NCBI RefSeq assembly: GCF_009846865.1
Contig: NZ_WUWN01000002.1
Coordinates: forward strand, 124,001 to 188,000
Origin: Puerhibacterium puerhi
Lineage (GTDB): Bacteria > Actinomycetota > Actinomycetes > Actinomycetales > Cellulomonadaceae
Length of the DNA stretch: 64,000 nucleotides
Direction: 5' to 3'
The position numbers were made by a program, and so were the translations under genes. This document shows positions 15,599-20,018 of the stretch, piece by piece (within the stretch, counting starts at the first letter, position 1; every line of letters begins with the position of its first letter). The notes beneath the pieces were generated by a model. It saw nothing but the letters and a program-made list of their open reading frames with translations, had not been told where the DNA came from and ran no database searches.

Positions 15599-16083
15599 CG
15601 CCGCGGCGAGGGTCGGTGTTGTAACCGATGGTGTGCGCCGCGTCGTGCAGCCGGGCAAAGAAGAACGCCGAACGAGTCAACGGGCATTGGTTCTTGCTCG
15701 AGATCAGGCGCAGGGCGCCACGATGAGTCGTGGAGAGGTCCGAGTTGGTCAACTGTCAACGTCGGTAGCGGCGACTCTAGCGCCGCCACCGCTAGCCCCA
15801 ATGAGTGGTAGGTGGGTGAGCCAAGCTTCACGCCCAAGGGCCGCTGATAACCCCGTTCAGGTCGCGGGTGGTTCGGGCGCGCCCGAAGCAGGCTGCATGG
15901 CCCGCGGACGAGCGTGAGGCGTCACCCGTCCCCCTGATCCGGCCCCGGCTGCGTCGGAGGGCACCGTGCGGGTGAAGTCAATGTCCCACGCGGCGCGAAC
16001 GCTGGCTCGCGTACCGAGGCAACCAATAGGGTGCCTGTGGCACGGTCGGGTTCACCAAGCAACGAAGCGCAAAGGGTGCATTG
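15599..16083. other. Gene-free stretch at left edge of the foreign island
   Basis: No convincing gene, RNA or repeat in these 485 bases. The reading frames present are short and lack the third-position G+C bias of real genes here. Base composition drops toward the right, so this is probably the junction between core chromosome and the acquired segment. No integrase, tRNA or flanking direct repeat could be found by eye. Confidence 0.5.
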
Positions 16084-17502
16084 ATGTACTTCAGTGAATC
16101 TGTGGGTGTTAAGTATCAGTCCTCATTCGACTGGTTTGATCCCGTTCTTGACACTGATACGCAGCTTTTCGTCGACCCGTTCCTCATTTACGAAGAGTCC
16201 TCAGGTGTTTGGGCGGACGCGCATGACGAACTCATCGGATATTTCCAAGCTGCGTTCGAACTGCTCGCCCCTGCGTGGGACAAGCCTCACGATCAGCGCT
16301 ACAGGCGCACCGAGACGGTTATGACCTTTCCAGAGCCGAAGGAATTCGGCCTCGGCTTTGTAGCTGAGGGTCAGGATGGCGCTGGCACGGCGTCAGGGTT
16401 CGCCCGGTTGATTGTTGCTGCAATGGCAGAGGCCATCGCGCGAGGCCTTGAGGACATGTCGCACTTCGAGGAGCTGGGGCTCCTTGTGCCGGGTATCGGC
16501 CGGGACAGGATTTCCGACATCACTTGCAACATTCTTAAGCACCGGTTCATTAAGTACACGCAAGACGTGTGCATCAATCTTGGGATTGAGATGCAGGAGG
16601 TGGAGGTGGCAAGCGCGGCGCTCGATCCCATTCGACGCCGCCGTGTCCCTCGAACCCACTGGTTGCCCGTGAACAAGATCACCGGCCGGCCGGTGATCCT
16701 CACGCCGAAGCGGTTCCTGCGTGAACTGCCAACCCTCAATGCCCGGGACTGGTGGCACTTCGCTGAGCACGACCTACGTGCTGACGTAAACCTCGACATC
16801 AGCCTCAGTGTCGACAAGAAGTTGATAATTGACCTGGCGAGGAGTCACGCCGAGAAGGTTCGAGAGTGGACGGAGAAGCGCGAGGACCAGCCGTCCTACC
16901 CTTACAAGGTCGATCGCGACCCGGCGGGTCTTCACAACTGGCTTCGCATGGCTCAGAAGTTCGTCGCTGACAATCCGATCTCATATGCCGTCACTGACGC
17001 TGATTCGCTCGACGTCTTCATTGGGAAGATCATAGATTACTTCCGCCAGTTCGTTGAGTTGCAGGGCGGCTGGAGACTTTTGTGGAACGATGACAACGGC
17101 AAGCCCAAGCGGGAAACTTCGATTCAACTCCTATTTAAGGGGATCGTGCAGGCGCAATGCGCCGCGAACGGAGTGATGCTCGACCGGGAGGTTGAACTGG
17201 GGCGAGGCCCTGTCGACTTCGTCATCTCGACGAGTGCCGCCCAGCGGGTCCTGCTGGAGGTTAAGAGAGTCAGCAGCAATAAGCTGATCGACGGGCTAAC
17301 CAAGCAACTGGTCTCCTACATCGAAAGTGACGGATGTGGGAGGGGCTGGTACCTCGCCGTGCGCTTCTACGACAGCGGCTCGGAGCTGCGGAAGGTTGAG
17401 ATGCTCCGGGCGGCGACGAAGGACGCAAGGCAAGAGAGCGGATTTGACCTCAAGACGGCGGTAGTGGACGCGACCCGTAAGAAGTCGGCCAGCAAACTGT
17501 GA
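16084..17502 (+). CDS. Large hypothetical protein with C-terminal PD-(D/E)XK nuclease motif
   Basis: Family not recognised by name; 472 residues. Near the C terminus, Asp378 (GRGPVDFVIS) and Glu392-x-Lys394 (LLEVKRV) form a PD-(D/E)XK arrangement, the active site of many restriction-type nucleases, with Glu residues just ahead. The N terminus (SESVGVKYQSSFDWFDP, then DTQLFVDPFL) and the large middle region are conserved-looking but of unknown role. ATG 16084 follows AAAGGG. Codon use is clearly unlike the neighbours: the first 60 bases are about 40% G+C and the gene is well below 65%. It stands alone before the MazG/helicase pair, so a defence nuclease is plausible but unproven. Confidence 0.7.
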   Translation: MYFSESVGVKYQSSFDWFDPVLDTDTQLFVDPFLIYEESSGVWADAHDELIGYFQAAFELLAPAWDKPHDQRYRRTETVMTFPEPKEFGLGFVAEGQDGAGTASGFARLIVAAMAEAIARGLEDMSHFEELGLLVPGIGRDRISDITCNILKHRFIKYTQDVCINLGIEMQEVEVASAALDPIRRRRVPRTHWLPVNKITGRPVILTPKRFLRELPTLNARDWWHFAEHDLRADVNLDISLSVDKKLIIDLARSHAEKVREWTEKREDQPSYPYKVDRDPAGLHNWLRMAQKFVADNPISYAVTDADSLDVFIGKIIDYFRQFVELQGGWRLLWNDDNGKPKRETSIQLLFKGIVQAQCAANGVMLDREVELGRGPVDFVISTSAAQRVLLEVKRVSSNKLIDGLTKQLVSYIESDGCGRGWYLAVRFYDSGSELRKVEMLRAATKDARQESGFDLKTAVVDATRKKSASKL

Positions 17503-17836
17503 GGTCGTGCTTGTTCTAGTTCGTCACAAGCTGCACCGCCTAGGGCAGCCCCTTCTGTGCGCCACCATCCCGGGTGGCCAGGCGGGCGTCGTCGCGAAAG
17601 CGCGACGCCCACCGGCGGGTACCCGGTACATATTCGGCGGGTGCCCAGAGTGCTCTCCTGAGAGGGCGCTGTCGGTGGCGCGCCCAGGCTTCCTGCCGTC
17701 GCTGAGGTCCCAAGTACCGTAGGCGGCGGCCGTACCTGTACCCGACAGCGAGAGCGGCGTCCTGTGCGGTCTACTCGTCGATGGCGGCTGGGCTGGCTCG
17801 GGATCCGGTCCGGCCGGCCGTGCTACGTTCCAGGCC
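17503..17836. other. Gene-free stretch within the island
   Basis: These 334 bases separate the nuclease-like gene from the MazG-like gene. Short frames on both strands have no plausible start, codon bias or recognisable product. The region presumably contains the promoter of the downstream pair; no clear -10/-35 pair stands out. Confidence 0.45.
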
Positions 17837-18157
17837 ATGCCCGACGCCGCTGTACTTCAGGCACTGAGAGCCTTCGTCGCCGAACGCGACTGGGGCCGGT
17901 TCCACTCGCCCGAGAACTTGGCGAAGAGCATCTCGATCGAGGCGGCCGAGCTCCTGGAGTGCTTCCAGTGGGGCCCCGACTTCACCGCCGACGAGGTCAG
18001 GTCCGAGCTCGCGGACGTGCTGACCTACTGCATCCTGCTGGCTGACAAGCTGGGCATGGACGTCGACCAGATCGTCCTCGACAAGCTCGCCGTCACCGCG
18101 AAGAAGTACCCCGTCGAAAAGGCCCGCGGGCGGAGCACGAAGTATGACGCGCTTTAG
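17837..18157 (+). CDS. MazG-like nucleotide pyrophosphohydrolase
   Basis: Small all-helical NTP pyrophosphohydrolase, 106 residues, expected to hydrolyse (d)NTPs to monophosphates plus PPi. Metal-binding motifs are visible: E35-x-x-E38 (SIEAAELLE) and E57-x-x-D60 (SELADVLTY). The N-terminal FHSPENLAKSI and the C-terminal KYPVEKARGRSTKYD segments are typical of the short MazG-like/dCTPase-related group. Its last 14 bases overlap the next gene, so the two are probably co-translated. Composition is intermediate between the island and core. Confidence 0.88.
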   Translation: MPDAAVLQALRAFVAERDWGRFHSPENLAKSISIEAAELLECFQWGPDFTADEVRSELADVLTYCILLADKLGMDVDQIVLDKLAVTAKKYPVEKARGRSTKYDAL

Positions 18158-19877
18158 GGTCGAGCGGCTCCCGTTCGAGGCCAGCGCAGTCAGCGCGAAG
18201 CGGAGCGACGCGCGCCTCACGAACTGGCCGGTCGTCTACGCGATCGATGGTGACCGGGACGTGTACGTCGGTGAGACGCTGAACGCGGTCGCGCGCATGC
18301 GACAGCACCTGGACTCTCCTGACAAGGGGCACCTCCAGCGCATCCGGATCGTCATCGACGATTCGGCCAACAAGTCCGCGTGCCTGGACCTCGAGTCCCA
18401 CTTGATCAGGTGGTTCGCCGGCGATGGGCGCCTCCAGGTCTTGAACCGGAATTTCGGCATCGTCGACGCGGACTACTTCGATCGCGCGAAGTACCAAGAT
18501 GTCTTTCGCGAGGTGTTCGAGGAACTTCGGTCCGAAGGGCTGTTCACCCGCACGATCCCCGAGATCGAGAACAGCGACCTCTTCAAGCTCTCGCCGTTCA
18601 AGGCGCTCAATCATGACCAGGCGATCGCCGTCGAGGACATCCTTGAGGGTCTCTTCCAAGACCTCGACCAGGGCCGTGAGAGCACGATCGTCGTCCAGGG
18701 CGACCCGGGGACCGGCAAGACCATCGTCGGCATCTACTTGATGAAGCTGCTCCGCGACATCGAGCTCGCGGACGTGAGCGAGGCGATCAACACCGAGACG
18801 ATGTTCGGGGAGTTCTTCGCGCAGGGCTATCCGGAGCTGCTCAGAGATTTCAAGGTGGCCCTGGTGGTCCCGCAGCAGTCGCTCCGAACGTCGATCCAGG
18901 GGGTCTTCCGCCGCACCCCCGGCTTGAGCCAGAAGATGGTGCTCACTCCGTTCGAGGTCGGCGAGAGCGACGAAGATTTCGATCTCCTCATCGTCGATGA
19001 GACCCACAGGCTCAACCAGCGTGCGAGCCTTGCGTCAGGAGTGCTGAACGGGAAGTTTCCCCTCATCAATCAGCGGCTGTTCGGCCAGGATGACCGCTCG
19101 AAGACGCAGCTCGACTGGATCCGCGCCAAGAGCAGGCACCAGATCTTCCTGCTGGACTCGGCTCAGCGCGTCAGGCCTGCGGACCTGCCCAGCGACGCCC
19201 TGGAGGCTCTCGCCGAGGAGGCTCGGAGCTCCAAGCGGCTCTACCCGTTGTCGTCGCAGATGCGTGTCATCGCCGGTCAGGACTACATCGACTACGTGCG
19301 ACGGGTGCTCGCTGGCAAGGATCCTCGGCCGCAGCGGTTCGCTGGCTACGAGTTCCAGATGTTCGACAACCTCGCGGCAATGCGGGATGCGATCGCTGCA
19401 CGCGAGGCGGAGTACGGGCTCTCCCGGCTCGTCGCCGGCTACGCATTTGAGTGGAAGAGCAAGACCAGCCGCGACGCGTTCGACATCGAGCTCGACGGTG
19501 TCCGGATGGTGTGGAATCGCACGACGAAGGACTGGATCAACAGCGCCACTTCGGTGAACGAGGTCGGGTCCATCCACACGGTGCAGGGCTACGACCTCAA
19601 CTATGCCGGCGTGATCATCGGAGAGGACCTCCGGTACGACCCCCAGGCCAAGCGACTGTACTTCGATCGGTCGTCGTACCACGACGCGAAGGGGATGCAG
19701 AACAACCCTCAGCTAGGCATCACGTACAGCGACGACGATCTGCTGGAGTTCGTCACCAACATCTACTCGGTGCTGATGACGAGGGGCATGCGTGGAACCT
19801 TCGTCTACGTCGTCGACCCGGCGCTGAGGCAGTACCTCCGTAACTTCATCCCGAGTGCATCACCGCGCAGGGCGTAG
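18144..19877 (+). CDS. GIY-YIG nuclease fused to DUF2075 helicase-like ATPase
   Basis: Two-domain protein of 577 residues. N-terminal GIY-YIG-type endonuclease fold: VVY at 30-32, VYVGET at 40-45 and an Arg/His helix (ARMRQHL). DUF2075 superfamily 1-like ATPase: Walker A GDPGTGKT at 186-193, Walker B DETH at 285-288, a Gln/Arg sensor near SSQMR (about 375), and the C-terminal helicase motif VHTVQGYDLNYAGVIIG-like block with GSIHTVQG. ATG 18144 overlaps the MazG-like gene. The pair is likely to act on nucleic acid and nucleotide pools, as phage defence systems do; this role is inferred. G+C falls to about 57% near the 3' end. Confidence 0.85.
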   Translation: MTRFRVERLPFEASAVSAKRSDARLTNWPVVYAIDGDRDVYVGETLNAVARMRQHLDSPDKGHLQRIRIVIDDSANKSACLDLESHLIRWFAGDGRLQVLNRNFGIVDADYFDRAKYQDVFREVFEELRSEGLFTRTIPEIENSDLFKLSPFKALNHDQAIAVEDILEGLFQDLDQGRESTIVVQGDPGTGKTIVGIYLMKLLRDIELADVSEAINTETMFGEFFAQGYPELLRDFKVALVVPQQSLRTSIQGVFRRTPGLSQKMVLTPFEVGESDEDFDLLIVDETHRLNQRASLASGVLNGKFPLINQRLFGQDDRSKTQLDWIRAKSRHQIFLLDSAQRVRPADLPSDALEALAEEARSSKRLYPLSSQMRVIAGQDYIDYVRRVLAGKDPRPQRFAGYEFQMFDNLAAMRDAIAAREAEYGLSRLVAGYAFEWKSKTSRDAFDIELDGVRMVWNRTTKDWINSATSVNEVGSIHTVQGYDLNYAGVIIGEDLRYDPQAKRLYFDRSSYHDAKGMQNNPQLGITYSDDDLLEFVTNIYSVLMTRGMRGTFVYVVDPALRQYLRNFIPSASPRRA

Positions 19878-19909
19878 GCGCCGCGCACCAAGCTCGACCA
19901 CTACGCGCA

Positions 19910-19950
19910 CGAACGCCGCCTCGGTCCCGCGGGGGCCGAGGCGGCGTTCG
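19910..19950. terminator. Strong hairpin after the island helicase gene
   Basis: CGAACGCCGCCTCGG (19910-19924) pairs perfectly with 19936-19950 across an 11-base loop, 33 bases after the helicase stop. No T-run follows, which is common for actinobacterial terminators. It marks the end of the island transcript. Confidence 0.6.
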
Positions 19951-20018
19951 CGTGCCTAGGGGAGTGAAGTCCCGGAGGCGCCGGTCTCCCCGCGACCGAA
20001 TCGTGACCCGCGCCGCGC

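What the first reader, a model, noticed from the sequence alone, without database searches (positions are those of the whole stretch)
17837..19877. MazG-like pyrophosphohydrolase overlapping a GIY-YIG/DUF2075 helicase-like protein
The 14-bp overlap ties a nucleotide-depleting enzyme with a nuclease-ATPase fusion. Nucleotide depletion plus DNA attack are both antiphage strategies; pairing them in one bicistron inside an acquired island makes this a strong candidate for an uncharacterised defence system.
Basis: inference. Interest (0 to 1): 0.72.

Follow-up and report, generated by a model that had tools for sequence, protein, structure and literature searches.

The report
Modular MazG–nuclease-helicase gene pair
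Two overlapping bacterial genes, one for an enzyme that probably breaks down DNA building blocks and one for a predicted DNA-cutting motor protein, occur together in many bacteria and the first also pairs with a differently armed motor, so they are a good but untested candidate for an undescribed anti-virus system.

Summary
A dCTPase-like MazG (17837-18157) overlaps by 14 nt a 577-aa GIY-YIG + Schlafen-group-3 (formerly DUF2075) SF1 helicase (18144-19877), in a low-GC patch of a high-GC contig. The pair is conserved: a MazG-like ORF lies by the helicase in 77 of the 80 closest relatives kept, and 58 of 73 scored pairs have the same 14-nt overlap. Catalytic residues are conserved. The helicase is patchy (22 of 221 genomes of the family), lower in GC than its surroundings in 54 of 56 loci, and seldom has the same genes on both sides (7 of 184 same-genus comparisons).

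New here: elsewhere, in bacteria and an archaeon, such a MazG sits beside helicases with a PD-(D/E)XK-like domain in place of GIY-YIG, and the window's nearest MazG found (79%) has such a partner: one MazG, two exchangeable nuclease-helicases. No PADLOC model fits the whole helicase, none the MazG; my paper searches found no description.

Defence is the best reading, inferred from context and domains; no activity was tested. Contrary: seven of nine Bacillota plasmid loci had no adjacent MazG, and nearby enrichment of defence genes is only suggestive.

The parts
17837..18157 (+). MazG-like all-alpha NTP pyrophosphohydrolase of the DCTPP1/RS21-C6 (dCTPase) kind, 106 aa
18144..19877 (+). GIY-YIG domain (residues about 28-100) fused to a Schlafen-group-3 SF1 helicase (residues about 150-565), 577 aa
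18144..18157 (+). 14-nt overlap ATGACGCGCTTTAG; the same geometry in 58 of 73 scored relatives
18225..18443 (+). codons of the GIY-YIG core (about residues 28-100): Y32, Y41, G43, R51, H55, N76, S78, E84
18699..18722 (+). Walker A codons, G186 to T193
19898..19962 (.). 31-nt inverted repeat just after the helicase stop; possible terminator hairpin, not called by the terminator scan

Best explanation
A mobile two-gene anti-invader (most likely antiphage) module. SHOWN: the two genes are a conserved overlapping unit; the second protein has the conserved residues of an SF1 (UvrD/Schlafen-like) helicase and those expected of a GIY-YIG nuclease; the first has the conserved metal-binding residues of dCTPase-type MazG enzymes; the unit is patchy, lower in GC than its surroundings, changes neighbours and has relatives on plasmids; such a MazG also pairs with PD-(D/E)XK-like helicases of the same family. 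INFERRED: the helicase recognises and runs along invading or abnormally replicating DNA and delivers the nuclease, which nicks or cuts it; the MazG hydrolyses dCTP (and probably damaged or modified dCTPs), made at translationally coupled levels, lowering the dNTPs needed to refill the nicked DNA or to copy the phage. MazG would be an amplifier rather than the core, since some helicases lack it and the nuclease type does not seem to matter to it.
For: MazG-like ORF beside the helicase in 77 of 80 Actinobacterial loci; start codon exactly at the 14-nt overlap in 58 of 73; distances in the two genes correlate, Mantel r 0.49, 0 of 2000 permutations reach it, n 67. Further surveys, partly of the same genomes: 13 of 25 PF12643 places over cut-off in 296 genomes of the phylum lie beside a PF09848 helicase; 17 of 22 GIY-YIG helicases in 221 genomes of the family have a MazG beside them; 12 of 26 plasmid records with this MazG also hold the helicase, which 37 of 72,556 records have. 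Patchy: 22 of 221 genomes, 11 of 25 genera. Lower GC than distal flank in 54 of 56 loci. Variable context: 7 of 184 same-genus pairs share genes on both sides, 42 on any side. Partner exchange: the closest MazG found (79%) is beside a helicase only 25% identical to the window's, with a PD-(D/E)XK-like motif; the motif E69/D80/E98-x-K100 is invariant in 16 of 16. Defence-like company in single loci: Priestia plasmid between a restriction endonuclease and a type I methylase/S subunit, Ligilactobacillus next to type I R-M genes, L. fermentum GIY-YIG helicase next to cas6/cas10. Helicase distantly related to AbiO/Nhi models. AF2 model pLDDT 91.2; UvrD Z 21.8, SLFN11 Z 19.3.
Against: No activity was tested. 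GIY-YIG is below Pfam cut-off in this protein and the model of that part alone has no PDB match at E <= 0.001. PADLOC neighbours: 232 model families matched by 130 of the 143 near proteins against 136 by the 127 distant ones, not counted per protein, many models redundant or generic; distant neighbours also hold Wadjet (JetA) and DrmA hits. Of nine GIY-YIG-type Bacillota plasmid loci opened, two have an adjacent MazG and seven do not; in the two Paenibacillus ones it lies 8-10 kb away. Five of 22 in the family have no detectable adjacent MazG, one of them at an N run. Relatives in phage records are few: 4 of 50,697; a capped viral-contig scan gave four loci. The 80 loci are the closest relatives out of 549 confirmed in a capped candidate list, all Actinobacteria, so their uniformity is partly selection. 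The family and genome surveys overlap (L092 and L098 recur as L153 and L154).
Confidence: 0.56

Rival explanations
1. Nucleotide-gated nuclease: MazG is a regulator, not a depleting effector. It removes a nucleotide that holds the nuclease-helicase off (or on), so that a change in the dNTP pool during infection switches DNA cutting.
For: Tight coupling and overlap, and MazG paired with two unrelated nuclease-like domains on the same kind of helicase, suggest MazG acts through or on the helicase rather than on a given nuclease. That Gabija's nuclease is inhibited by nucleotides is recalled, not checked here.
Against: No contact or regulatory data; helicases without an adjacent MazG exist.
Confidence: 0.2
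2. Housekeeping: MazG clears damaged dCTP (as mycobacterial MazG does with 5-OH-dCTP) and the nuclease-helicase repairs DNA; the pair is a stress-repair module.
For: Mycobacterial MazG is an antimutator that hydrolyses 5-OH-dCTP (PMC3855555, abstract and section list seen). The closest solved structures are dCTPases. Genes annotated as MutT or (deoxy)nucleoside triphosphate pyrophosphohydrolase lie near on three plasmids. In the window's genome it is the only PF12643 match; classical MazG (PF03819) was not searched for.
Against: Patchy helicase (22 of 221); the same-genus genome, 91% complete, has no MazG match at E <= 1e-12; lower GC than its flank in 54 of 56 loci; variable context; relatives on plasmids of several phyla.
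Confidence: 0.15
3. Plasmid or mobile-element maintenance function (competition between elements, or help to the element's own replication) with no role against phages.
For: 12 plasmid records hold both genes; two plasmid loci of the helicase lie near transposase or integrase genes.
Against: The window's copy lies between ordinary chromosomal-type genes and no element ends were found around it; mobile backbones were not assessed in the other loci.
Confidence: 0.07
4. Chance neighbours with no shared function.
For: Helicases with no adjacent MazG: five of 22 in the family and seven of nine Bacillota plasmid loci.
Confidence: 0.02

Closest known systems
AbiO (lactococcal) and Nhi (nickase-helicase innate immunity)
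   Same: Both models match the helicase part weakly (AbiO E 6.4e-8, Nhi E 1.7e-5; down to about E 5e-12 in relatives); their antiphage roles are recalled, not checked here.
   Different: No match over the whole protein: best AbiO stretch is residues 155-203. This protein has a GIY-YIG domain and a MazG partner; those models are of about 470 positions.
PADLOC candidates PDC-S41 (657-position model) and PDC-S14
   Same: PDC-S41 matches the C-terminal helicase part (E 4.4e-9) and PDC-S14 the GIY-YIG part (E 4.7e-5). In PD-(D/E)XK-like relatives PDC-S41's best stretch is N-terminal in L027 and L128 and C-terminal in L131 and L035.
   Different: Each covers one half only of this protein; the MazG has no PADLOC hit.
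DCTPP1 / RS21-C6 dCTP pyrophosphatase (MazG superfamily)
   Same: Alignment over residues 11-104, with the catalytic acids and the aromatic W19, W45, Y64 shared.
   Different: Shorter, and tied to a nuclease-helicase gene; substrate not tested.
Gabija (OLD nuclease + UvrD-like helicase GajB)
   Same: Works alike in outline: nuclease plus SF1 helicase, with a nucleotide theme; a review table says GajB senses DNA termini and hydrolyses (d)ATP or (d)GTP (PMC10952713, passages seen).
   Different: Different nuclease and helicase families, nuclease fused to the helicase, and a pyrophosphohydrolase partner.
dCTP deaminase / dGTPase nucleotide-depletion defence
   Same: Idea of lowering dNTPs against phage (a listed defence class in PMC8649781, passage seen).
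   Different: Unrelated enzymes (recalled); depletion by MazG here is only inferred.

Membership tests
MazG-like / dCTPase-type all-alpha NTP pyrophosphohydrolase | family profile over curated cut-off | tested here: met
   PF12643 68.8 bits vs 27
MazG-like / dCTPase-type all-alpha NTP pyrophosphohydrolase | metal-binding acids E, E, E, D conserved | tested here: met
   E35, E38, E57, D60 in 67 of 67
MazG-like / dCTPase-type all-alpha NTP pyrophosphohydrolase | hydrolysis of dCTP or relatives | not testable with these tools
   needs an enzyme assay
Schlafen group 3 (DUF2075) helicase | PF09848 over cut-off with intact Walker A and B | tested here: met
   218.2 bits vs 24; G186-K192 and D285-E286 invariant in 59 of 59; SF1 fold, SLFN11 Z 19.3
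GIY-YIG nuclease | PF01541 over cut-off | tested here: inconclusive
   17.7 bits vs 22.6 in this protein; over cut-off in L018, L124, L137
GIY-YIG nuclease | conserved Y, Y-x-G, R, E, N residues | tested here: met
   Y32, Y41, G43, R51, E84 invariant in 59 of 59, N76 nearly so; which residues define the family is recalled
GIY-YIG nuclease | fold | tested here: inconclusive
   domain model pLDDT 90.6; UvrC GIY-YIG domains among the most probable matches (0.91-0.92, TM 0.60 on target) but E 0.15-0.17, none <= 0.001
AbiO / Nhi | match along the whole model | tested here: not met
   partial helicase match only
PDC-S41 or PDC-S14 | match along the whole model | tested here: not met
   each covers one half
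Gabija | OLD-family TOPRIM nuclease (GajA) plus GajB | tested here: not met
   no Pfam or PADLOC hit of that kind in the proteins at 16081-19877
Antiphage defence system | shown protection against phage | not testable with these tools
   needs a plating assay
Antiphage defence system | patchy, mobile, among defence genes | tested here: inconclusive
   patchy and of changing context: met; enrichment of defence genes near by only suggestive

The most novel reading that the evidence does not exclude
A new class of antiphage system in which a dCTPase-type MazG is the constant module and the nuclease-helicase is the exchangeable one (GIY-YIG or PD-(D/E)XK-like), in bacteria and archaea. Boldest mechanism not excluded: MazG destroys modified dCTPs (such as hydroxymethyl- or methyl-dCTP) that phages use to armour their DNA, so that progeny DNA is made with plain cytosine and becomes cleavable by the partner nuclease: anti-modification and restriction in one operon.
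Probability: 0.15. Interest if true: 0.88.

Novelty: new variant of a known kind. Interest (0 to 1): 0.62.

Why it matters
If it is a defence system, it would link two known strategies, attack on DNA and control of the dNTP pool, in one conserved unit, and would give the DUF2075/Schlafen-group-3 helicases of prokaryotes a biochemical partner to test. The swap of nuclease-like domains beside a kept MazG is a natural experiment: it predicts that MazG acts on a step common to both. It is directly testable with two short genes in a laboratory host.

Tried and rejected
Chance neighbourhood: rejected. Membership in AbiO, Nhi, PDC-S14, PDC-S41: partial matches only. The upstream gene 16081-17502 as a third component: a relative was found in 1 of the 80 loci (L118, about 3 kb upstream), so I leave it out, though it shares the low-GC patch. 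Natural fusion as proof of contact: L111 reads as one 682-aa frame, but the junction looks like a small indel and a sequence error is not excluded; not used as evidence. Empty-site comparison: the same-genus genome (G001) matches up to window 15596, then carries other genes, and its contig ends at 11,421 bases, so no clean empty site. Direct repeats flanking the patch: none convincing. Promoter and terminator consensus scan: 0 and 0 sites. Viral-contig scan with the archaeal helicase: six pattern matches, none confirmed. The careful tree did not finish; the quick tree was used for description only, and it places the window without starred support. PD-(D/E)XK naming rests on the motif only: Pfam names nothing there and no model of that part was made.

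Papers: searches for DUF2075 with MazG, DUF2075 with GIY-YIG, and Schlafen with GIY-YIG and helicase returned 0 papers; DUF2075 alone 5, none on this by title and abstract start; the listings, and the passages opened in five of those papers, gave nothing on the pair. The library lacks most subscription papers and most preprints, so absence there is weak.

Full report
WHAT IS THERE. Window 17837-18157 (+) encodes a 106-aa MazG-like protein and 18144-19877 (+) a 577-aa protein; the reading frames overlap by 14 nt. The first passes PF12643 (68.8 bits, cut-off 27) and its nearest solved relatives are RS21-C6 / dCTP pyrophosphatase 1 (E 3.5e-16). The second passes PF09848, the Schlafen group 3 helicase once called DUF2075 (218 bits, cut-off 24), and has a weak GIY-YIG match at its N-terminus (17.7 bits, cut-off 22.6). 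Relatives L018, L124 and L137 pass the GIY-YIG cut-off.

STRUCTURE. An AlphaFold2 model of the 577-aa protein with 59 aligned sequences has mean pLDDT 91.2 and pTM 0.89. Foldseek's list is headed by SF1-type helicases including UPF1 and human SLFN11; by VIA-align 2 the best are UvrD (Z 21.8, rmsd 3.7, 312 residues) and, at rank 6, SLFN11 (Z 19.3, rmsd 3.8, 276 residues). The first 145 residues alone give pLDDT 90.6; no PDB match reaches E 0.001, but UvrC GIY-YIG domains are among the most probable (probability 0.91-0.92, TM-score 0.60 on the target, rmsd 3.3), after a plant glutaredoxin N-terminal domain. Residues expected of a GIY-YIG site (recalled pattern) are conserved in 59 sequences: Y32, Y41, G43, R51, H55 and E84 invariant, N76 nearly so. 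Walker A (G186, G189, G191, K192) and Walker B (D285, E286) are invariant. In MazG, E35, E38, E57 and D60 are invariant in 67 of 67, and W19, W45 and Y64 align with aromatic residues of the dCTPase (that these bind the base is recalled).

IS THE PAIR REAL? A genome-collection scan with a 13-sequence helicase alignment hit its candidate limit and confirmed 549 relatives; the best 80 were kept, all from Actinobacteria. This is a sample of the closest relatives. With a MazG profile, an ORF of that kind is by the helicase in 77 of 80; L086, L092 and L098 have none, in L104 it lies downstream, in L095 about 1.2 kb upstream with another ORF between, and in L111 both read as one 682-aa frame. In 73 loci with a same-strand MazG ending near the called helicase start, 58 have a start codon at exactly the 14-nt overlap. 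Distances of the two proteins correlate across 67 pairs (Mantel r 0.49; 0 of 2000 permutations reach it).

FURTHER SURVEYS, partly of the same genomes. In 296 genomes of the phylum there were 30 PF09848 places over 100 bits and 25 PF12643 places over cut-off; 13 of the 25 lie beside a helicase (opened). Of the 12 others, eight are from one genus (f21, g49). In 221 genomes of the window's family, 22 have the GIY-YIG helicase; 17 of 22 have a MazG beside it, two of these only as partial MazG matches; of the five without, one has a run of N there. On plasmids, 37 records hold a helicase relative and 26 a MazG relative out of 72,556; 12 hold both, seven of them within about 2 kb and the rest within about 10 kb. 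About 0.01 shared records would be expected if they were independent. Against the link: of nine GIY-YIG-type Bacillota plasmid loci opened (L017, L018, L020-L026), the profile finds an adjacent MazG in two, L018 and L025; in the two Paenibacillus plasmids it is 8-10 kb away.

PARTNER EXCHANGE, the main new result. Helicases of L027 (Halalkalicoccus plasmid), L128-L132, L134, L034 and L035, all with MazG adjacent, do not start with GIY-YIG. An alignment of 16 proteins of this type, some without adjacent MazG, shows invariant E69, D80 and E98-x-K100 in front of the same helicase, the pattern of a PD-(D/E)XK nuclease (the assignment is from the motif and recalled; Pfam names nothing there). MazG may be upstream, downstream or divergent. 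In the window's own family, the 15 MazG matches with E below 1e-40 (window included) all lie beside a helicase of this kind: 13 beside a GIY-YIG type and two, in G494 and G400, divergently beside a PD-(D/E)XK-like type. The G494 MazG is 79% identical to the window's over 106 residues, while its helicase is 25% identical to the window's. The other 58 of the 73 family genomes with a MazG match have weaker ones only, and these are a mixture: some lie beside such helicases (for example G351, G358, G363, G365), others far from any (for example G412, G414, G416). G352 has helicase matches on both sides of one MazG, one of them partial. So MazG has moved between two kinds of nuclease-helicase, or the helicases have replaced each other beside it.

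MOBILITY. The GIY-YIG helicase is in 22 of 221 genomes and 11 of 25 genera of the family. In 56 loci long enough to compare, the pair has lower GC than the distal flank in 54 (mean 6.8 points lower). Among 184 same-genus locus pairs, seven share homologous neighbours on both sides and 42 on at least one side; truncated flanks lower these numbers somewhat. All four Brevibacterium loci share upstream genes, so local vertical descent or a hotspot also occurs. In the window, the low-GC patch runs from about 15.6 to 19.9 kb; a same-genus contig matches up to 15596 and then has other genes.

DEFENCE CONTEXT. PADLOC models at E <= 1e-8 matched by 130 of the 143 nearest neighbours: 232 families, led by type IV restriction (4 members), PDC-S48 (4) and PbeA (4), then NERD+UvrD, GajB-like helicases, AriA and type I REase (3 each), PD-Lambda-1 and methylases (2 each); Pfam adds GmrSD and DUF3427. 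By 127 distant neighbours: 136 families, led by mad3 (5), mad8 (4), AriA (3) and JetA (2), with DrmA, a type II methylase and others once each. Only the first 25 families of each list are shown, and these are counts of families, not of proteins with a hit, so the enrichment is suggestive only. Single loci are striking: a Priestia plasmid with restriction endonuclease, MutT, DUF3578, MazG, helicase, N-6 methylase and S subunit; Ligilactobacillus with S subunit and N-6 methylase; L. fermentum GIY-YIG helicase with cas6 and cas10; Lactobacillus amylolyticus GIY-YIG helicase with restriction endonuclease and DUF262. The last two have no adjacent MazG.

HOW IT MAY WORK. Best reading: the helicase carries the nuclease to invading DNA, and MazG, co-translated, lowers dCTP or related nucleotides so that cut DNA is not refilled or the invader not copied. 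Steps on DNA and on nucleotides are inferred from the families. Rivals: MazG as a switch for the nuclease; housecleaning of damaged dCTP (mycobacterial MazG removes 5-OH-dCTP, PMC3855555, abstract seen); plasmid maintenance. The bold reading, MazG against modified dCTPs that protect phage DNA, fits a dCTPase beside a nuclease but has no direct evidence.

KNOWN OR NEW. PADLOC 2.0.0 has no model that matches the MazG (E up to 1), and only partial matches for the helicase: AbiO, Nhi, PDC-S41, PDC-S14. Searches of the open library found no paper on the pair; subscription papers and preprints are mostly not covered. I call it a new variant of a known kind (nuclease-helicase defence), with the caution that defence itself is not shown.

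Noticed in passing
window 16081-17502 (+): 473-aa protein matching PADLOC candidate PDC-M36A (E 2.8e-33) and phage family phrog_30194 over nearly its whole length (E 1.5e-51), GC 0.578, with a weak NucS match near its C-terminus (E 0.036); another candidate defence gene in the same patch.
   Followed up: partly
L027, L128-L132, L134, L034, L035, L151, L152: PD-(D/E)XK-like domain fused to the same kind of helicase and adjacent to MazG, in an archaeon and several bacteria.
   Followed up: yes
L124 9697-9710 and L158 7001-7014: Gene order reversed (helicase then MazG), yet the overlap is again 14 nt.
   Followed up: no
L129 4047-9047; genome G352 contig 110: One MazG with helicase matches on both sides, on opposite strands; looks like a composite of modules.
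   Followed up: no
L017, L026, L166: A DUF3578 gene lies just upstream of GIY-YIG helicases in two Paenibacillus plasmids and of MazG plus a DUF2075 helicase in a Priestia plasmid: a possible third partner.
   Followed up: no
L046, L056, L062, L076, L108, L110, L113: Seven loci with a homologous gene upstream that looks like argC, most with further arginine-biosynthesis-like genes; a possible insertion hotspot (gene names read from sequence, unverified).
   Followed up: no
L111 9626-11674 (Phycicoccus sp. HDW14): MazG and GIY-YIG helicase in one open frame of 682 aa; natural fusion or sequence error.
   Followed up: partly
L018 324-9695 (Lactiplantibacillus plantarum plasmid): The pair sits inside a longer same-strand run with another NTP pyrophosphohydrolase, a DEAD/DEAH helicase, two hypothetical proteins and a DUF2357 protein.
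   Followed up: no
window 19898-19962: 31-nt inverted repeat, 84% complementary with a 3-nt gap, just after the helicase stop; not called as a terminator.
   Followed up: no
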